Assembly (NCBI RefSeq): GCF_013387475.1
Contig: NZ_VWNB01000001.1
Coordinates: 214,559-278,558 of the forward strand
Reading direction: 5' to 3'
DNA length: 64,000 bases
DNA from: Mariprofundus sp. KV
GTDB taxonomy: Bacteria; Pseudomonadota; Zetaproteobacteria; Mariprofundales; Mariprofundaceae
This document shows positions 2,506 to 17,159 of the stretch, piece after piece. The first letter of the stretch is position 1; every line of letters begins with the position of its first letter. The notes under the pieces were generated by a model that did not search any database, was not told where the DNA came from, and saw only the letters and a list, made by a program, of their open reading frames with translations. The translations under genes and the position numbers were made by a program.

Positions 2506-3174
2506 ATGTCCAAGCTAAGAATTTCGCTGACCATCCTGCTGCTACCGCTCTTCTCAGGCTGTGCGGCGATTGATGCATTTCTCTTCGATGCGTACCCCGA
2601 TGGCACACCGATTACCCAGGAGCGGCCACAACAGGTTGAGCAGGTGGCTCCGGCTGCCGAGGAGTCAGGCGGTGATGCCGCACTGCGCGATGAAGCCGCA
2701 GCGCTGCGCGAAGAGCTCAAACAGCAACAGGCTGAACTGGAGGCGCTGAAACAGAAAAAAGCTGCCGAAGCGGCTGCCGCGGCTGCCGCCATCAAAGAGC
2801 AGCTATGGGTTAGAATTGCATTCCGTTCAGGCCAGACAGCTGTAACGGCCCAAACCAGACGCACCATCAAAGAGCTCTCCAATAAGTTTCTCGCTCAGCC
2901 CCGCACACAGACAATCGAGGTGCGCGGCTACTGTGATGATGAGCCGATCGGTGGCTACAGCGGCAAGCAACGCTCTGCGCACAGTTTTGATTCTCAGGTT
3001 GCCCTGAGTCAGGCACGTGCTGATGCAATTGCCGCTGAGTTCAAAAAAGCAGGCATCCCGGCTGAAGCAATCCATGCTATGGGTTTTGGTGCCACGGACT
3101 TTATTGCTGATAATGCTACCGTTGAGGGACGCAACAAAAACCGCCGGGTTGATATCTTTCTGGTTGAGAAATAA
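2506..3174 (+). CDS. OmpA-family (Pal-like) lipoprotein
   Basis: The 222-residue protein has a signal peptide with lipobox LFSGC, a linker, an alanine-rich coiled coil (about 60-100) and a C-terminal OmpA-like peptidoglycan-binding domain (about 105-222). That domain shows VRGYCDDEP, LSQARADAIAAEF and GRNKNRRVDI, where the Asp and Arg that grip diaminopimelate are expected. It likely anchors the outer membrane to peptidoglycan. It is longer than Pal and lies outside a tol cluster, so I leave the symbol blank. It is preceded by aggag and followed by a strong terminator. Confidence 0.85.
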   Translation: MSKLRISLTILLLPLFSGCAAIDAFLFDAYPDGTPITQERPQQVEQVAPAAEESGGDAALRDEAAALREELKQQQAELEALKQKKAAEAAAAAAAIKEQLWVRIAFRSGQTAVTAQTRRTIKELSNKFLAQPRTQTIEVRGYCDDEPIGGYSGKQRSAHSFDSQVALSQARADAIAAEFKKAGIPAEAIHAMGFGATDFIADNATVEGRNKNRRVDIFLVEK

Positions 3175-5862: not shown

Positions 5863-6975
5863 TCACTCATGATGAAAGGAGTCAATCAGCTGAATGATCG
5901 CATCCGGATCGACATCTTCGGCAAGAAAGGCATCACCGATACCACGCAACAGAATATAACGGATTCGACTACCGACATTCTTCTTGTCATGCCCCATAGC
6001 ATCCAGCCACTGCGCCGCTGAAAACTCCGGCACATCCACCGGCAGGCCGATACGCTGGTAACAGGCCCGGATCGAAGCTTCCGTACCTTCAGGGGCATAA
6101 CCGAGCTGCTCGGAGAGGCGTGCAGCCATCACTGTACCAATGGCCACTCCTTCACCATGCAGATAGGTGCTGTAGTGGGTCATCGACTCAATGGCATGGC
6201 CAAAGGTGTGGCCAAGATTGAGTAGGGCACGCTGCCCCTGCTCGGTCTCATCGGCCATCACCACTTCAGCCTTGTGGCGGCAGGAGGTGTGAATCATGCG
6301 CGCCAGCACATCGGCATCGAGATCAAGTGCAGCGCTCTCATTCTGCTGCATCCAGACAAAGAAGTCGGGATCGCGAATCAGACCATATTTGATCGCTTCA
6401 GCGATACCCGCTCTGATCTCACGCATATCAAGCGTTGCCAGCACCTTCGGATCAATCCAGACCAGTTTCGGCTGGTAGAAGGCACCAATCATATTTTTGC
6501 CATGCGGATGATTGATCGCGGTCTTGCCGCCGACACTCGAATCCACCTGTGCCAGCACCGTGGTTGGCACCTGAATAAAGGGGATGCCACGCCGGTAACA
6601 TGCGGCTGCAAAGCCGGTCATATCACCGACCACGCCGCCACCGAGTGCGATAATCGGTTCATTACGCGAAAGCTTACTCTCCATCAGTGCATCCATGATC
6701 AAACCGAAGCTGTCCATGGTTTTATAACGTTCACCATCCGGCAGAATGCATTCGCTTACTGACCAGCCCGCCTGCTCAAGAGAGTTGCGCACACGCTTCA
6801 TATACAACGGTGCGATCGTTACATTACTTATCACCATGCAACGGGTCGGCCTGGCAAACAGCTTGCCCATCTCCTCGCCCAGCCCATCCAGACAGCCCGG
6901 TTCGATATGGATATCATAGGAGCGGGCTCCCAGATCAACATGGTAGTTATGTACGTTCACTTCAAATTCAGCCAT
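5863..6975 (-). CDS. aroB: 3-dehydroquinate synthase
   Basis: The 370-residue cytosolic enzyme converts DAHP to 3-dehydroquinate, the second step of the shikimate pathway, using NAD and a divalent metal. It shows the NAD-binding segment ALGGGVVGDMTGFAAA, the substrate lysine region GGKTAINHPHGKN, and metal His ligands in LNLGHTFGHAIE and YLHGEGVAIG. Length is normal. Its usual partner aroK is not adjacent; cobT follows instead. The 172-base gap upstream separates it from msrB. Confidence 0.95.
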   Translation of the reverse strand: MAEFEVNVHNYHVDLGARSYDIHIEPGCLDGLGEEMGKLFARPTRCMVISNVTIAPLYMKRVRNSLEQAGWSVSECILPDGERYKTMDSFGLIMDALMESKLSRNEPIIALGGGVVGDMTGFAAACYRRGIPFIQVPTTVLAQVDSSVGGKTAINHPHGKNMIGAFYQPKLVWIDPKVLATLDMREIRAGIAEAIKYGLIRDPDFFVWMQQNESAALDLDADVLARMIHTSCRHKAEVVMADETEQGQRALLNLGHTFGHAIESMTHYSTYLHGEGVAIGTVMAARLSEQLGYAPEGTEASIRACYQRIGLPVDVPEFSAAQWLDAMGHDKKNVGSRIRYILLRGIGDAFLAEDVDPDAIIQLIDSFHHE

Positions 6976-7147
6976 CAGCGGAGTCTGACATTTTCCCTGC
7001 CTTCAGAGAAGCCGGAAAAATCTCTGTTTCCAGCACAAAGAGCAGGATGATAAAACCTGAAAACAGACTGTTTTACGTCTCGTCAGCAACGATAAAGGTT
7101 GTATTGACCCGTCCCTCGCTCTGCCTCCTGCTCCTGGTGATGCATGC

Positions 7148-7636
7148 TTATGCCGGAACAAAGCGCAGGGCGACGCCGTTGTTACACCAGCGCTGGCCAG
7201 TTGGCTCAGGCCCGTCATTAAAGACGTGCCCCTGATGACCGCCACAGCGCGCACAGTGGTATTCGGTGCGCGGCAGAATCATTTTGAAATCGCGTTTGGT
7301 CTCGATCTGCCCCTCAATCGGCGCATAAAAACTTGGCCAGCCGGTGCCGCTGTCGAATTTTGTCTCCGATGAGAAGAGCGCCAGATCACAACCGGCACAG
7401 TGGTAAACACCTCTCCCATACTGCTTGTTCAGTTCGCTGGTGAAGGGGCGCTCTGTCCCCTCTCTGCGCAGCACATCATACTGCGCAGCGGTCAAAATAT
7501 TGCGCCACTCGGCATCTGTTTTTTCAATCTTCTCAATCATCGAAACACTCCTCTCACTGCCTGCCTTAAGCAGACGCGGCGCCACCAGAATCAGTCCGGC
7601 AGCCATAGTTAATCGCAGAAAGCCTCGTCTATTCAT
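7148..7636 (-). CDS. msrB: Peptide-methionine (R)-S-oxide reductase with Tat-like signal
   Basis: The 162-residue protein repairs methionine-R-sulfoxide in proteins. Two CxxC pairs (CAGC and CARC) form the structural zinc site, and the C-terminal RWCNNGVALRF carries the catalytic Cys. The N terminus MNRRGFLRLTMAAG matches a twin-arginine signal (RRxFLR) followed by a hydrophobic stretch, so a folded zinc protein is probably exported to the periplasm. ATG 7636 follows ggaggtgacc and overlaps the msrA stop by 8 bases, showing translational coupling. Confidence 0.93.
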   Translation of the reverse strand: MNRRGFLRLTMAAGLILVAPRLLKAGSERSVSMIEKIEKTDAEWRNILTAAQYDVLRREGTERPFTSELNKQYGRGVYHCAGCDLALFSSETKFDSGTGWPSFYAPIEGQIETKRDFKMILPRTEYHCARCGGHQGHVFNDGPEPTGQRWCNNGVALRFVPA

Positions 7637-8225
7637 GGTCACCTCCCCAGAGCTGCTGCAGTCGCTGATCCCGACCACAGTTATAGCGGTAGAACTTATA
7701 GCGGATCGGATTTCTCAGATAGTAGTTCTGATGGTACTCCTCAGCAGGCCAGAAGGTGGTCGCTTCGCTAATCTCAGTCACCACATCCTCGTGGAACCGC
7801 TTGTTCTTCTGCACTCCCACTTTCGAGGCTTCTGCCGCCTGTTGCTGTGCCGCAGAGTGGTAAAAAATACCTGGGCGATACTGTGAACCGACATCACAGA
7901 ACTGCCGGTTGGCCGTGGTCGGATCGGAGTTGCGCCAGTAGACCTGCAGCAGCGTCTCATAACTGACCAGCGCCGGATTAAAGACAATCTGAATCGCCTC
8001 GGTATGACCAGTCGAACCTGCCGACACCTCTTCGTAACTCGGATTGTCCTTGTGACCGCCGGTATAACCGGAGGTGGTCGAGATCACACCGGGCAGTTCG
8101 TCAAAGGGGTGCTCCATGCACCAGAAGCAGCCTGCCGCAAAGGTGGCTGTCTCTCTCTCTTCTGCTTGTGCGCTGTTTACTATTGTCATCATAATCATTA
8201 TTGCCAATACAATTATCCGTTTCAT
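7629..8225 (-). CDS. msrA: Peptide-methionine (S)-S-oxide reductase, exported
   Basis: The 198-residue protein reduces methionine-S-sulfoxide. The catalytic motif GCFWCMEHPF follows a Sec-type signal peptide (about residues 1-20, ending SAQA). Later family motifs are TSGYTGGHKDNPSYEEV, GHTEAIQI and GSQYRPGIFY. ATG 8225 is chosen because aggaggt lies 4 bases upstream. It is first in a two-gene operon with msrB, and together they handle both sulfoxide stereoisomers in the periplasm, a plausible need in an organism exposed to reactive oxygen. Confidence 0.94.
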   Translation of the reverse strand: MKRIIVLAIMIMMTIVNSAQAEERETATFAAGCFWCMEHPFDELPGVISTTSGYTGGHKDNPSYEEVSAGSTGHTEAIQIVFNPALVSYETLLQVYWRNSDPTTANRQFCDVGSQYRPGIFYHSAAQQQAAEASKVGVQKNKRFHEDVVTEISEATTFWPAEEYHQNYYLRNPIRYKFYRYNCGRDQRLQQLWGGDHE

Positions 8226-8329
8226 GAAACCTCCTGTTCGCCCTGTTAGACGACCGGATGAGCAAATCATTACAGACTATTTCTGAATTTCAGATGAATG
8301 ATACGTCGATGATGGGCACAATCGGGGGC

Positions 8330-9517
8330 ATGGACAGATATGATGTGATTGTGATCGGTGCCGGAGCCGCCGGGCTGATGTGTGCAGGAACCGCTGCCAC
8401 ATGTGGCAGATCGGTGCTGCTGCTCGACCATGCCGAGAAGGTGGGCAAGAAGATTCTTATCTCCGGAGGCGGACGCAGCAACTTCACCAACCGATCTGTT
8501 TCGGCCGCCAACTACCTTTCGCACAACCCCCACTTCTGTAAATCAGCACTCTCCCGCTTCACTGCTGCCGATTTTATCACGATGGTGGAAGAGGCTGGCA
8601 TCGCTTATCACGAACGCGACCATGGCCAGCTCTTCTGCGATGAGTCTGCCAGACAGATTGTTGAGATGCTGCTGCAACCCTGTCGCGAACATGGTGTGAA
8701 GATTCAACTACAGACCACCATTACAGCGGTGAAAAAAAACGACTGTTTTGAACTGGTCACCGACAGAGGCCTCTTTCACTCTGAAAGAGTGGTGATCGCA
8801 ACCGGAGGCCTCTCCATCCCCAAGATGGGAGCCACCGCCTTCGGACTGAAATTGGCTGAGCAGTTCGGGTTAACAATCATTCCACCGGTGGCCGGCCTTG
8901 CCCCCTTCACCTTCACCGGCAGGGAGAAAGAGGCGTTGCAGGCACTGGCAGGCATCTCAGTAGATGTCGCAGTGCGCTGTCGAGGTAAGCTGTTCAGGGA
9001 GGCGATGCTCTTCACCCACCGTGGCCTCTCAGGCCCGGCCATGCTGCAGATATCATCCTACTGGCAGCCCGGTGATGCGATAGAGATCGATCTGCTACCT
9101 GAGCAGGAGATCACCACGCTGCTGAAGCTCAAGAAATTATCCAGACCGCTGGCGCAACTCTCGACAGTACTTGCCGAACTGCTGCCCAAACGACTGGTGC
9201 AGCTTCTAACCGGTGGCTATATCGAGGATCTCCGCATGCAGCAACTCAGTGACAGGCAGATTGAGCAGCTGGCAGATCAACTGCATCACTGGCGGCTTAA
9301 ACCCAACGGTACCGAAGGTTATCGCACCGCCGAGGTGACTGTGGGTGGTGTCGACACCAACGAGCTCTCGTCCAAAACAATGGAGAGCAGGAAGGTTCCC
9401 GGGCTCTATTTCATCGGTGAAGTGGTCGATGTGACCGGCCATCTGGGTGGCTTTAATTTCCAGTGGGCCTGGTCATCCGGTTACACCGCCGGTCTCGCCG
9501 TTGCAGATATGATCTAA
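8330..9517 (+). CDS. NAD(P)/FAD-dependent oxidoreductase, HI0933/YhiN family
   Basis: The 395-residue flavoprotein begins with an FAD Rossmann motif (VIVIGAGAAGLMCA), has SGGGRSNFTN near residue 45 and VIATGGLSIPKMGAT near 160, and ends with the family signature YFIGEVVDVTGHLGGFNFQWAWSSG. These identify the HI0933-like (BaiN/YhiN) family, whose substrate in most bacteria is unclear. The start is uncertain: in-frame ATGs lie at 8258, 8294, 8309 and 8312, but homology of the FAD motif favours ATG 8330. It is divergent from msrA. Confidence 0.85.
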   Translation: MDRYDVIVIGAGAAGLMCAGTAATCGRSVLLLDHAEKVGKKILISGGGRSNFTNRSVSAANYLSHNPHFCKSALSRFTAADFITMVEEAGIAYHERDHGQLFCDESARQIVEMLLQPCREHGVKIQLQTTITAVKKNDCFELVTDRGLFHSERVVIATGGLSIPKMGATAFGLKLAEQFGLTIIPPVAGLAPFTFTGREKEALQALAGISVDVAVRCRGKLFREAMLFTHRGLSGPAMLQISSYWQPGDAIEIDLLPEQEITTLLKLKKLSRPLAQLSTVLAELLPKRLVQLLTGGYIEDLRMQQLSDRQIEQLADQLHHWRLKPNGTEGYRTAEVTVGGVDTNELSSKTMESRKVPGLYFIGEVVDVTGHLGGFNFQWAWSSGYTAGLAVADMI

Positions 9518-13346: not shown

Positions 13347-13967
13347 ATGAGTAGAACCATTCACTGGCCCAGTACCACCTTCGTGCAATCGGTTGCCGAT
13401 CCGAAACTGTTTCCCGACATTGATCTGCCGCAGATCGCTGTGGCGGGCCACTCCAATGTTGGAAAATCGTCACTGATGAATGCGCTGTTCGGTCGTAAAG
13501 GCCTGGTGAAAACCTCAAAGAATCCCGGTTGCACACGTCTGCTCAACCTCTTTGATGTGGATGACCAGATACTGGTCGTGGATCTGCCCGGTTACGGTTA
13601 TGCGCGTGCGCCGAAGAAAGAGCAGAAGCGCTGGATCACCATGATTGAAGGTTATATGGCCAACACCGACCTGAAACTGGTGCTACTACTGCTCGATATC
13701 CGCCACGGCCCTAAAGATTCAGATATGCAGCTGATTGAATATCTCAATGAAGCAGGCCTGCGCTGGCTGCCAGTGGCCACAAAAGCCGATAAACTCTCCG
13801 GCAATGCACGCGGCAAACGTCTGAAAGAGATGTTTGATGCGATGGGTATGGCCCCGATTCCAACCTCAAGCCTGAAAGGCATGGGCATCGACAAACTTCG
13901 TGCCGTAGTTCAGGAAGAGGCGTTCAGATCACCCTACGCAGGCCTCGTCCCTAATATCGAGGATTAA
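13347..13967 (+). CDS. engB: Ribosome biogenesis GTP-binding protein YihA/YsxC
   Basis: The 206-residue GTPase takes part in large-subunit assembly. G1 is AGHSNVGKSS, G2 includes NPGCTRLLN, G3 is DLPGYGYARAPK and G4 is ATKADKLS. ATG 13347 gives the normal family length. A longer in-frame reading from 13179 would add residues unlike the family, encoded by the dusB leader. It is divergent from dusB-ntrBC and convergent toward the Dabb remnant. Confidence 0.94.
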   Translation: MSRTIHWPSTTFVQSVADPKLFPDIDLPQIAVAGHSNVGKSSLMNALFGRKGLVKTSKNPGCTRLLNLFDVDDQILVVDLPGYGYARAPKKEQKRWITMIEGYMANTDLKLVLLLLDIRHGPKDSDMQLIEYLNEAGLRWLPVATKADKLSGNARGKRLKEMFDAMGMAPIPTSSLKGMGIDKLRAVVQEEAFRSPYAGLVPNIED

Positions 13968-13993
13968 ACCTCGTAATCGACCACGGTGCTAAC
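13964..13993 (-). pseudogene. 3' remnant of a Dabb-domain gene
   Basis: On the minus strand these bases encode VSTVVDYEV and a stop, nearly the same as the C terminus ARTVVDYEV of the intact Dabb gene at 14593-14874. At DNA level 13969-13993 and 14597-14620 align closely with about five differences. The remnant overlaps the engB stop. It implies that an old Dabb 3' end once sat here, and that the toxin-antitoxin cassette now lies between two copies of it. Confidence 0.6.
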
Positions 13994-14085
13994 AATCCAA
14001 GGCCTTTCACAAGAGGATTGATTTGACTTCAATAGAGTTCCGGCGCAATTTACCATGTGCTAATTGGCTCATAGTGAGGTGATAC

Positions 14086-14286
14086 ATGGCTGGTAAAGAT
14101 GTTTTGAAACAGGCGTTAAACCTTAATCCGGAAGAACGCTTCCTGGTTGTTGAAGGCTTATTGAAAAGCCTTGATGAACCGGACGCGAAGCTTGATGCCA
14201 TTTGGGCTGAAGAGGCCGAAAAACGACTGGCTGCTTATCGGCAAGGTAAACTTGCAGGCATCCCAATGGAGGATGTGTTCAGGTAA
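14086..14286 (+). CDS. Addiction-module antitoxin (TIGR02574-type)
   Basis: The 66-residue acidic protein contains LNPEERFLVVEGLLKSLDEP and a C-terminal segment with IWAEEAEKRLAAY. This matches the short putative addiction-module component family that is paired with RelE/ParE toxins. The start ATG 14086 follows gaggtg by 5 bases. It ends 6 bases before the toxin start, so the two are co-transcribed. A possible -35 TTGACT is at 14023-14028. Such antitoxins bind and neutralise the toxin and usually repress their own promoter. Confidence 0.85.
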   Translation: MAGKDVLKQALNLNPEERFLVVEGLLKSLDEPDAKLDAIWAEEAEKRLAAYRQGKLAGIPMEDVFR

Positions 14287-14292
14287 TCATCC

Positions 14293-14568
14293 GTGCAGAT
14301 AATCTTTTCATCTCTCGCGAAATCCGAATTGGATGATGCATCCAGATTTTACGAAATCGAGTTCGCCGGATTGGGACAACAGTTCAAAGATGAGGTACGA
14401 AAAGCAGCCCTCCGTATTGCCGAGTACCCCAAAGCATGGTCAACTGAACAGGGCGAAGTCAGGAAATGCCTACTGCACCGATTCCCATACAAAATACTAT
14501 ATTCAATTGAACACGATCATATTTTTGTTATCGCGATTGCTCACCAGCATAGAAAACCCGACTACTAG
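14293..14568 (+). CDS. RelE/ParE family toxin
   Basis: The 91-residue basic protein starts at GTG 14293, 6 bases after the antitoxin stop. It shows the plasmid-stabilisation (ParE-like) pattern: an N-terminal strand IIFSSLAKSELDDASRFYE, a middle RIAEYPKAW, and C-terminal HRFPYKILYSIEHDHIFVIAIAHQHRKPDY with conserved Arg/Tyr and an IAHQHR ending. ParE members poison gyrase while RelE members cut mRNA; the sequence resembles the ParE-type group more, but the target is not proven. Confidence 0.88.
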   Translation: MQIIFSSLAKSELDDASRFYEIEFAGLGQQFKDEVRKAALRIAEYPKAWSTEQGEVRKCLLHRFPYKILYSIEHDHIFVIAIAHQHRKPDY

Positions 14569-14592
14569 ATTGATGCAAACTAACCGTATTAA

Positions 14593-14874
14593 TCAGACTT
14601 CGTAATCAACCACGGTGCGGGCAACGGCTGCACCCTTAACCAGCGGAATCACAGCCACATGTTCAGGATGCGCCTGATAAATATTCAGCGCCTCACGGCT
14701 CTCCAGCTCGGAATATAAGACAACATCAGCAGACTGCTCCGACTCCAGAAAGTCGATCCCGACCTCAATCTTGATCAACCCGGGAATCTTGCCAGCCAAA
14801 GCCTCCAGCCGCGCTTTGATCTCCGCCGCATCAGCTTTATCCCTCAATTTCCACATCACGATATGTTTGACCAT
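14593..14874 (-). CDS. Dabb (stress-responsive alpha/beta barrel) domain protein
   Basis: The 93-residue single-domain protein begins MVKHIVMWKLRDKADAAEI and has the Dabb features GLIKIEVGIDFLES, DVVLYSELESREALNIYQAHPEH. Dabb proteins form dimeric ferredoxin-like barrels. Some are stress-induced and some act in small-molecule metabolism; function here is unknown. ATG 14874 follows ggaggggg by 5 bases. Its 3' end is duplicated at 13964-13993, flanking the toxin-antitoxin pair. Confidence 0.85.
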   Translation of the reverse strand: MVKHIVMWKLRDKADAAEIKARLEALAGKIPGLIKIEVGIDFLESEQSADVVLYSELESREALNIYQAHPEHVAVIPLVKGAAVARTVVDYEV

Positions 14875-14919
14875 TTTCACCCCCTCCATATTGTGCCCAA
14901 GCAAGCTTCTAGAATTAGT

Positions 14920-14940
14920 CTATAATATGCAATATTATAG
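14920..14940. promoter_or_regulatory. Perfect inverted repeat in a divergent promoter region
   Basis: The 9-bp arms ctataatat and atattatag are separated by gca. The site lies between the divergent Dabb gene (start 14874) and the lipoprotein gene (start 14985). TATAAT at 14921-14926 and its mirror could serve as -10 elements in both directions, or the palindrome could be an operator. Confidence 0.4.
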
Positions 14941-14984
14941 AAAAGGTATGCTATTTGAGAGTTCAAATAGTTTAGGGGAAGAGC

Positions 14985-15779
14985 GTGAACCAAATTAAAA
15001 AACTTTCTATTGCCACCAGCCTAATCGTATTACTAATTTCTACCTCATCTTGCACTACCGCCTCAAATCGAAAACCTCTTGAAATAATGCCATATACGGA
15101 AAAGTTAAAATCAACCGATATCACAAACATTAAATTAGTATTTACCGAAGTTGTTTCTGGAAAGCCATTCAATGAAACTGTATGGGATAATAAAGTCGGA
15201 GCATTCTGGGACGTAAAAGAATCAAACCAAATTGGTTATACCCAAGACTATTCAAAATTTATCCCTGTTGCAGTAGCCGGAGGGCTTGTTGGTGGAGTAG
15301 TAGGAGGAACAATCGCTGCAAGTTCAGCCGGAAAGGATGGGTTAATTGATACAAGAATAGTCATTCCATTTGGGAAAATTATTTCGACAACTTTTGAATC
15401 AGCACTAAAAACCAACTCTATCAGTCATTCATCATGTTATGTTTCAACTTGCACTTCAGAAGCATCTTCCCAAGATGTATTATCTATTCATATTGACGAA
15501 TTATATCTTTGGGAAGAACCACTAAATCATATTAACCTTGTCATTAAAGGAAAAAGCACTTATTCCTCCAAAGGTGAAATTGTGACCCAATACTCCTTTG
15601 AAAAGTCGATGCTTGCTCAAAGGCTTGCTAAGGTAACAAGTACATCAACGGCCCTTATCAAAGAGATGAACAGGCTTTCTAATGTACTAGCTCAAGAAAT
15701 CTCCACCATGATAATTATCAATTCATTAAATGGTGGAGATCAAATCAGCAGAATTAACACCAATAATACAAATAATTGA
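14985..15779 (+). CDS. AT-rich hypothetical lipoprotein with glycine zipper
   Basis: The 264-residue precursor starts at GTG 14985 after aggggaag. The signal peptide ends at the lipobox STSSC (Cys near 23), so the product should be lipidated. Residues 87-110 form a Gly-rich hydrophobic segment (GGLVGGVVGGTIAASSAG) typical of glycine zippers that insert in or span membranes. The rest has no family I recognise. The gene is visibly richer in A and T than its neighbours and uses codons such as ATA and TTA freely, which suggests horizontal gain. It sits beside the toxin-antitoxin patch. Confidence 0.75.
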   Translation: MNQIKKLSIATSLIVLLISTSSCTTASNRKPLEIMPYTEKLKSTDITNIKLVFTEVVSGKPFNETVWDNKVGAFWDVKESNQIGYTQDYSKFIPVAVAGGLVGGVVGGTIAASSAGKDGLIDTRIVIPFGKIISTTFESALKTNSISHSSCYVSTCTSEASSQDVLSIHIDELYLWEEPLNHINLVIKGKSTYSSKGEIVTQYSFEKSMLAQRLAKVTSTSTALIKEMNRLSNVLAQEISTMIIINSLNGGDQISRINTNNTNN

Positions 15780-15831: not shown

Positions 15832-16176
15832 ATGACCCAGTTTTCTCAGGCTGTGGTGGCATGGGGGAATCCTGATTTCAAGGCTGCGGTAAAGTGTGAT
15901 ATTGAGCAACTGTCGGTTAACGAATTGCCTTTACAGCAGGGACTGAGGAACGGAAGCGTTGCGTTGGATGACGATATTCAGGCGATGATTCTCAATGTGC
16001 AGGAATCGGACACATCCATCCGGGTGAAGGCGGGGATATTTTACAAATCGATCATTGCCGGATGCAGTTGTGCCGACGATCCGACACCTGTTGATGAGGT
16101 GGATGAACACTGTGAAGTGCAGATCAATATCAACAAGGCCTCGGGTGAGGCCACAATCACTCTGTTACAGGATTAA
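15832..16176 (+). CDS. Conserved-looking hypothetical protein, 114 residues
   Basis: I do not recognise the family. The protein is acidic, has no signal peptide or membrane segment, and carries Cys residues in [11 protein letters not shown] and EHCEVQ that could bind a metal. Base composition matches the core genes, unlike the AT-rich gene upstream. The stop overlaps the convergent bioB stop by 4 bases. No Shine-Dalgarno is obvious, but the ATG at 15832 opens a well-formed frame. Confidence 0.65.
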
Positions 16177-17159
16177 GCGTTGGCCATGCGGCGGGACGAT
16201 GGGGTTGGTTTCTCCATCGGGCGCAGGCCGAGTTTCTCAAACAGCTTCTGGTCGTTACTCGCTTCCTGATTGCCGGTGGTAAGCAGCTTCTCACCATAAA
16301 AAATAGAGTTAGCGCCAGCCAGGAAGCAGAGCGCCTGCATCTCTTCACTCATCTCTTCACGACCTGCAGATAAACGCACATGGGAGCCCGGCATGGTGAT
16401 GCGGGAGACGGCGATGGTGCGGATGAATTCGAAGTTATCCAGCGTGCCTGCAAACTGTTCATCTTCAGCAACGGGCGTGCCCTCAACCTTCACCAGCATA
16501 TTGATCGGCACAGACTCAGGATGCGGATTCATGCGTGCCAACTGAGCCACAAGACCGGCGCGATGACGGCGTGACTCGCCCATGCCGACAATGCCGCCAC
16601 AGCAGATACTCATGCCTTCAGCACGTACATTCTTCAGGGTATCGAGCCGCTCATCATAGGTACGGGTTGAAATGACCTCTTTATAGTATTCAGGATCGGA
16701 ATCGAGGTTGTGGTTGTAGTAATCCAGGCCTGCACCTTTGAGTTTATGCGCCTGATCGGGGGTGAGCATGCCGAGTGTGGCACACGCCTCCATATCCATC
16801 TCCTTGATCTCGGAGATCATGTCGCAGACCAGATCAAAAGCGCGACCTTTTGGTTCACGCCATGCCGCACCAATACAGAAACGTGATGCGCCCTTCTCTT
16901 TGGCCGCTTTGGCCGCTTCAATCACCTGCGCCTTTTTCATCAGCAGTTCGGATTCAACATCGGTGTTGTAACGCGAGCTTTGCGGACAGTATTTACAATC
17001 TTCCGGGCAGCCGCCGGTTTTAATGGAGAGCAGGGTAGAGAGCTGAACCTCATTGGCATCGAAGTTGCCACGGTGCACCTGCTGTGCCAGGAACATCAGG
17101 TCATTGAACGGCAGCTCAAACAACTCTTGAATCTCATCAACTGTCCAATCAAAACGCAT
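16173..17159 (-). CDS. bioB: Biotin synthase
   Basis: The 328-residue radical-SAM enzyme inserts sulfur into dethiobiotin. The SAM cluster motif is CPEDCKYC, preceded by KTGGC. Other family blocks are [25 protein letters not shown] and the C-terminal [18 protein letters not shown] 17159 follows aggaga. It is transcribed alone here, without bioF or bioD, downstream of an inverted GTTAAC-containing site that resembles a BirA box with unusual spacing. Confidence 0.96.

What the first reader, a model, noticed from the sequence alone, without database searches (positions are those of the whole stretch)
13964..14620. Toxin-antitoxin cassette caught between a duplicated gene 3' end
The last 9 codons of a Dabb gene appear twice, once as a remnant overlapping the engB stop (13964-13993) and once in the intact gene (14593 on). 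The roughly 600 bases between the copies are exactly a type II toxin-antitoxin pair. This looks like insertion with re-creation of the target gene end, or gene conversion after capture of a second Dabb copy along with the cassette.
Basis: seen in the sequence. Interest (0 to 1): 0.52.

Follow-up and report, generated by a model that had tools for sequence, protein, structure and literature searches.

The report
Toxin-antitoxin pair beside swapped gene end
In an iron-oxidising marine bacterium, a small toxin-antitoxin pair sits between a leftover scrap of the old neighbouring gene and a different version of that gene, a footprint suggesting the pair arrived from a relative together with a piece of its neighbour.

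Summary
The repeat (13963-13989 / 14592-14618, 23 of 27) brackets a PF09720 antitoxin and a ParE-type toxin. The nearest relative, G051, has engB and Dabb abutting, with one 3' end. The engB-side copy matches it 27/27 and stays similar to about 14017, where the intact gene shows no further similarity. So the 'remnant' is the resident gene's own end, about 57 nt, and not a copy of the intact gene's end. The intact Dabb and the next shared gene are as far from G051 as from other species, whereas flanking genes are about 90% identical. Best reading: the pair came with a different Dabb allele that replaced the resident one, probably along with DNA up to 16.2 kb. Tree tests are mixed and no donor was found. 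A modest survey suggests recurrence: 5 of 24 other testable PF09720 pairs in the family have related sequence on both sides, versus 0 of 28 acetyltransferase loci; copies tend to differ at third codon positions. Parallels exist for restriction-modification and T6SS modules, so this is a TA example of a known kind of event.

The parts
13347..13967 (+). engB/ysxC (ribosome biogenesis GTPase), resident left flank; its TAA stop overlaps the remnant Dabb stop
   Evidence: TIGR03598 189 bits; 90.9% nt identity to G051
13964..14019 (-). remnant of the resident Dabb 3' end (right limit uncertain, 14013-14022)
   Evidence: 27/27 to G051 over 13963-13989; blastn to G051 continues to 14017; extension p=0.0002
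14086..14286 (+). antitoxin, PF09720 / TIGR02574 (66 aa)
   Evidence: Pfam 62.7 bits, cutoff 23.3; NCBIfam 34.4 bits, cutoff 31.9
14293..14568 (+). toxin, ParE/RelE superfamily PF05016 (91 aa, GTG start)
   Evidence: Pfam 41.8 bits, cutoff 23
14593..14877 (-). intact Dabb gene (94 aa), allele different from the resident remnant
   Evidence: PF07876 90 bits; 84.2% nt to G051, 87.6% to G043
14985..15779 (+). ORF of 264 aa, lipoprotein-like by eye, no Pfam or NCBIfam match, GC about 36%; absent from all other genomes searched
   Evidence: 1 of 74 family genomes (the window's own) has it
15832..16176 (+). 114-aa ORF shared with relatives but 73% nt to G051 (inter-species level); right end of the inferred foreign block
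16173..17159 (-). bioB-like gene (name by eye), resident right flank, 91.9% nt to G051
   Evidence: 60-nt windows rise from 30/51 at 16126 to 55/60 at 16216

Best explanation
The TA pair was acquired from another Mariprofundus-like lineage on DNA that also carried that lineage's Dabb gene. The incoming Dabb took the place of the resident Dabb by recombination, while the join on the other side fell inside the last ~57 nt of the resident gene, leaving that end stranded next to engB. Shown: one 3' end in relatives, two different 3' ends here, the engB-side end is of the resident (G051) type, and Dabb and the 114-aa ORF are anomalously divergent from G051 while both flanks are not. Inferred: that TA, Dabb, the 264-aa ORF and the 114-aa ORF came in one event; that one end joined by homology and the other by illegitimate joining (homology-facilitated illegitimate recombination). 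The pair itself probably works as an ordinary type II module: antitoxin first, ParE-type toxin second; activity was not tested.
For: Empty site, single 3' end: G051, G043, G047 with a 2-nt gap and TTAA-overlapped stops, G045 similar. Remnant vs G051 27/27, vs intact 23/27; local scores 66 vs 34, extension p=0.0002 vs 0.84. Within those nine codons the intact and remnant copies differ by 4 synonymous codon changes and 1 nonsynonymous change at the edge, as expected of two functional alleles. Divergence ratio d(G000,G051)/mean d(G051; G043,G045): ntrC .53, dusB .50, engB .45, bioB .55, ptsI .44, but Dabb .93 [.74-1.15] and 114-aa ORF .97 [.81-1.13]. Fisher, G000-G051 differences vs five flank genes (562/5724): Dabb 44/279, p=0.002; 114-aa ORF 92/342, p=9e-18. 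AU test of a G000+G051 clade for Dabb, 6 taxa: p=0.0155; the flank tree supports that clade 100/100. The 264-aa ORF is absent from 73 of 73 other family genomes searched, and no DNA match to the cassette longer than 97 nt was found in them.
Against: AU tests are mixed: Dabb with 21 taxa p=0.088, 114-aa ORF p=0.167, the two joined p=0.077. In the Dabb tree G051 groups with G047 (99/96), against the flank tree, so G051's own Dabb may have been exchanged; the deep direction of transfer is therefore unclear. No donor with TA next to Dabb was found. The left join cannot be placed to the base. Third-position excess for the Dabb end alone is not significant (3 of 5, p=0.21).
Confidence: 0.66

Rival explanations
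1. Insertion with long target duplication: the TA entered the end of the resident Dabb and duplicated at least 57 nt of it locally; later the Dabb-to-114-aa-ORF stretch was replaced separately by ordinary homologous recombination.
For: Direct repeats flank the insert and relatives have one copy. The neighbourhood recombines in this genus (Dabb tree conflict).
Against: Needs two events; the remnant scores higher against seven relatives' ends than against the intact gene's end; copy differences are mostly synonymous.
Confidence: 0.2
2. Site-specific or transposon-type insertion: the repeats are att sites or a target site duplication of a small mobile cassette.
For: Repeat length (27 nt) is near that of Xer-type sites (recalled; for the length).
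Against: No recombinase-sized ORF between the repeats, no inverted repeats at the cassette ends, no dif-like site within 3 mismatches of one recalled consensus in the genome, no second copy of the cassette in the genome.
Confidence: 0.05
3. Two unrelated insertions at permissive convergent gene ends, with the engB-side similarity surviving only because engB and Dabb stops overlap.
For: 7 of 17 genomes with both genes have 261 nt or more between engB and Dabb, with other contents, so the junction tolerates inserts.
Against: The engB-side copy extends far beyond the shared TTAA, to about 57 nt.
Confidence: 0.07

Closest known systems
Insertion with long target duplication of restriction-modification genes (Nobusato et al. 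2000; seen here only through passages of PMC1643837 and a reference in PMC2654758)
   Same: Addiction-type genes lie between direct repeats of a neighbouring stretch; relatives have one copy.
   Different: Here the two copies are different alleles (27/27 vs 23/27 to the resident type) and the rest of the intact gene is also anomalous, so a local duplication does not suffice.
Homology-facilitated illegitimate recombination, as proposed for T6SS effector-immunity arrays in Vibrio cholerae (PMC5361080, passages read)
   Same: Incoming module anchored by a homologous stretch, other end joined without homology, resident gene's 3' end pushed back and left as a remnant.
   Different: Here the module is a type II TA and the anchor a small conserved Dabb gene; in Vibrio the model concerns the effector genes themselves. 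The non-homologous join is not resolved here.
Chromosomal type II TA modules at variable intergenic sites (review PMC7167474, passages read)
   Same: Strain-specific TA between conserved neighbours; the same junction holds other inserts in relatives.
   Different: The review says the mechanism of movement and integration is unelucidated; this locus keeps a footprint of it.

Membership tests
Type II toxin-antitoxin module (PF09720 / ParE) | Adjacent antitoxin and toxin genes of recognised families | tested here: met
   6 nt between antitoxin stop and toxin start
Type II toxin-antitoxin module (PF09720 / ParE) | Toxicity neutralised by the antitoxin | not testable with these tools
   Needs expression assays
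Insertion with long target duplication | Insert flanked by direct repeats, single copy in relatives | tested here: met
Insertion with long target duplication | The two repeat copies derive from one another | tested here: not met
   Remnant scores higher against seven relatives' ends than against the intact copy; 27/27 vs 23/27
Homology-facilitated illegitimate recombination | One join by homology: allele replacement on one side | tested here: inconclusive
   Divergence ratios .93 and .97 vs .44-.55 in flanks fit replacement; AU tests mixed (p=0.0155, 0.088, 0.167, 0.077)
Homology-facilitated illegitimate recombination | Other join at microhomology between donor and recipient | not testable with these tools
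   No donor sequence found
Transposon or IS insertion | Terminal inverted repeats and a transposase, short target duplication | tested here: not met
Integron gene cassette | attC site and integrase | not tested
   No attC search was run

The most novel reading that the evidence does not exclude
TA modules of this type spread among Mariprofundaceae by carrying an end of a neighbouring conserved gene as a homology handle; the resident and incoming versions of that gene end remain on either side of the module as an allele-labelled footprint. This would be a general route by which small TA modules without any recombinase move.
Probability: 0.33. Interest if true: 0.62.

Novelty: new member of a known kind. 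Interest (0 to 1): 0.36.

Why it matters
How recombinase-free TA modules move into chromosomes is described as unelucidated in the review read here (PMC7167474, passages). A locus that keeps both the resident and the incoming version of the neighbour's end gives a concrete, countable signature that can be searched for in any genome set. The family survey (5 of 24 other testable loci, against 0 of 193 windows, and 0 of 28 acetyltransferase loci) suggests the signature is not unique to this locus.

Tried and rejected
Local duplication of the Dabb end: rejected as sole explanation because the remnant is not closest to the intact copy. Xer/dif-type sites: one recalled consensus, no match in the genome with up to 3 mismatches. 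Donor in phages or plasmids: only toxins under 60% identity (8 plasmid records, 1 phage record); viral contigs none. Solved structures for toxin and antitoxin: none at E 0.01. Sigma-70 promoter and terminator scan of 13900-15100: 1 promoter-like site, on the + strand at 14867-14894, outside the TA genes and under the shuffle mean of 1.9, uninformative.

Other insert-bearing junctions: a Dabb-end remnant next to engB was sought in six more genomes. G054 gave p=0.012 over all relatives, best with the G051 end and not with its own intact end (p=0.31); after dropping the engB stop p against G051 is 0.026; treated as suggestive only. G049 gave p=0.004, but through a 17-nt match not at the expected position; G052, G062, G046 and G044 gave nothing.

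Which ggt 3' end in G054 (L115) is the resident one: not resolved, both are 68-79% identical to 11 relatives.

Survey caveats: two overlapping surveys were run; of 30 toxin loci, one gave no hit and three were too short, leaving 26; besides the window, 5 exceeded every shuffle; 0 of 736 random windows reached a score of 50 and 7 reached 34; the window's own score is 34; of 31 antitoxin loci 6 were too short, leaving 25 with the window, whose repeat this geometry excludes, hence 5 of 24. The 193 and 736 control windows are not independent (overlapping stretches, related genomes). Phylum-wide: 2 of 18 testable of 20 loci; of these L221 has a 161-nt repeat at 95.7% that does not look like a gene fragment, and L225 a 28-nt match far from the TA, so neither supports the gene-end pattern. 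Fisher 5/24 vs 0/28 acetyltransferase loci p=0.016; 7/42 vs 0/28 p=0.037. L116 and L123 are arrays with several repeats and may have other causes.

Full report
What is there. The window lies in a Mariprofundus-like genome: G000, 2.53 Mb, 28 contigs; genus inferred from the best named matches. Between engB and a convergent Dabb gene sit a PF09720 antitoxin and a ParE-type toxin. A 27-nt direct repeat of the Dabb end flanks them, 23 of 27 matching.

The empty site. Twenty relatives' stretches with Dabb were fetched; 16 also hold engB, 4 do not. In the 16, engB and Dabb are 1-35 nt apart in 10 and separated by 261-1189 nt in 6. With the window that makes 10 empty and 7 filled of 17. In G051, G043 and G047 the two stop codons overlap in TTAA, and in G045 too by the sequence. 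The contents of the filled sites differ; two (G046, G049) hold a Host_attach gene.

Which end is the resident one. The engB-side copy matches G051 27/27, G045 26/27, G043 25/27, G047 24/27, G048 and G063 23/27, and the intact window gene 23/27. Beyond these 27 nt it stays similar to G051 (p=0.0002) and G047 (p=0.0008), weakly to G045 (p=0.039) and G043 (p=0.055), and not to the intact gene (p=0.84; 5000 shuffles each). Blastn to G051 runs to 14017. With the engB stop left out, local scores are G051 52, G043 40, G045 39, G047 34 and intact 34. So the remnant is the leftover of a G051-type resident gene, and the intact gene is another allele. The two copies differ by 4 synonymous and 1 nonsynonymous codon change.

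The intact gene and its neighbour are anomalous. G000 against G051: ntrC 90.6, dusB 90.4, engB 90.9, bioB 91.9, ptsI 88.5% nt identity, but Dabb 84.2 and the 114-aa ORF 73.1. Normalised by each gene's own rate the ratios are .44-.55 in flanks, and .93 and .97 in these two. The 264-aa ORF between them is found in no other of 74 family genomes, and its GC is about 36% against 51-57% in most flanking stretches. Trees: flanks join G000 and G051 at 100/100. Dabb alone rejects this with 6 taxa (p=0.0155) but not with 21 (p=0.088); the 114-aa ORF (p=0.167) and the two joined (p=0.077) do not reject it. G051's own Dabb groups with G047, so exchange of this gene is likely common and its ultimate direction is not settled. 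What does not depend on that is that two alleles coexist in the window.

Mechanism. The simplest account is arrival of DNA carrying TA and a non-resident Dabb, homologous replacement on the Dabb side and a non-homologous join on the engB side inside the resident gene's last ~57 nt. This is the model called homology-facilitated illegitimate recombination. Passages of PMC5361080 apply it to T6SS effector-immunity modules; [quoted passage not shown] The single-event claim and the nature of the left join are inference.

Is it recurrent? In 24 other testable PF09720 loci of the family, 5 have similar sequence on both sides of the TA: L115/L177 in G054 (ggt 3' end, 351 nt, 84%), L122 in G058 (5' end of a gene I recognise from memory as a carbamoyltransferase, 109 nt, 89%), L123/L197 in G052 (5' end of a gene of unknown family, NERD-like by recall, four copies in an array with Abi and ORF6N genes), L141/L179 in G058 (50-68 nt) and L116/L187 in G065 (ORF6N region); repeats, Pfam labels. 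Controls: 0 of 193 windows, 0 of 28 acetyltransferase loci (30 taken, 2 too short). Copies differ with a third-position excess in L115 (27 of 48, p=0.0009), one pair of L123 (16 of 26, p=0.003; another pair p=0.038; four pairs show none), L122 (4 of 5, p=0.045) and one frame of L141 (9 of 13, p=0.009, chosen among six frames); L116 was not tested. This fits alleles brought together and not fresh local duplications, but the numbers are small. For ggt the empty site is seen in relatives: sequence from downstream of the G054 insert is found near ggt in 8 of 11. Outside the family the pattern was not confirmed: 2 of 18, neither a clear gene end.

Literature. Searches listed no report of this for TA modules that I recognised from titles and abstract starts; they cover only the open-licence library. 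Insertion with long target duplication is known for restriction-modification genes (passages of PMC1643837). The TA review PMC7167474 (passages) calls the integration mechanism unelucidated.

Verdict. Real, and best explained as horizontal replacement with a stranded resident gene end; ordinary in outcome, useful as a footprint of how TA modules move.

Noticed in passing
L123 (G052:C13) 81-251, 1315-1485, 2180-2350, 2858-3028: Array in which Abi-like, PF09720/ParE and ORF6N genes each lie between copies of the same ~171-nt gene start; looks like repeated insertion at one gene's 5' end.
   Followed up: partly
L115 (G054:C31) 1013-2408: TA pair between an intact ggt gene and a second, 84% identical copy of its 3' end; relatives have ggt near the same downstream sequence.
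   Followed up: partly
L148 (G054) 5912-6498 and 6830-8339: In G054 both sides of Dabb hold extra DNA as in the window: a 161-aa ORF near engB and, on the other side, an HTH_3 gene that looks HigA-like by eye.
   Followed up: partly
L165 (G060:C132) 349-445; L164 (G015:C98) 1501-1597: Antitoxin fragments about 81-82% identical in DNA to the window's antitoxin, in other surroundings, apparently decaying.
   Followed up: partly
16173-16176: The 114-aa ORF and the bioB-like gene overlap by their stop codons (TTAA) in the window, as engB and Dabb do in relatives; in G051 they are apart.
   Followed up: no
L221 (G126:C27) 998-1158 and 1732-1892: A 161-nt, 95.7% direct repeat flanks a PF09720/ParE pair in another family; no clear gene fragment.
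   Followed up: partly
Dabb gene across the genus: The Dabb tree joins G051 with G047 (99/96) against the flank tree, suggesting further exchange of this gene.
   Followed up: no
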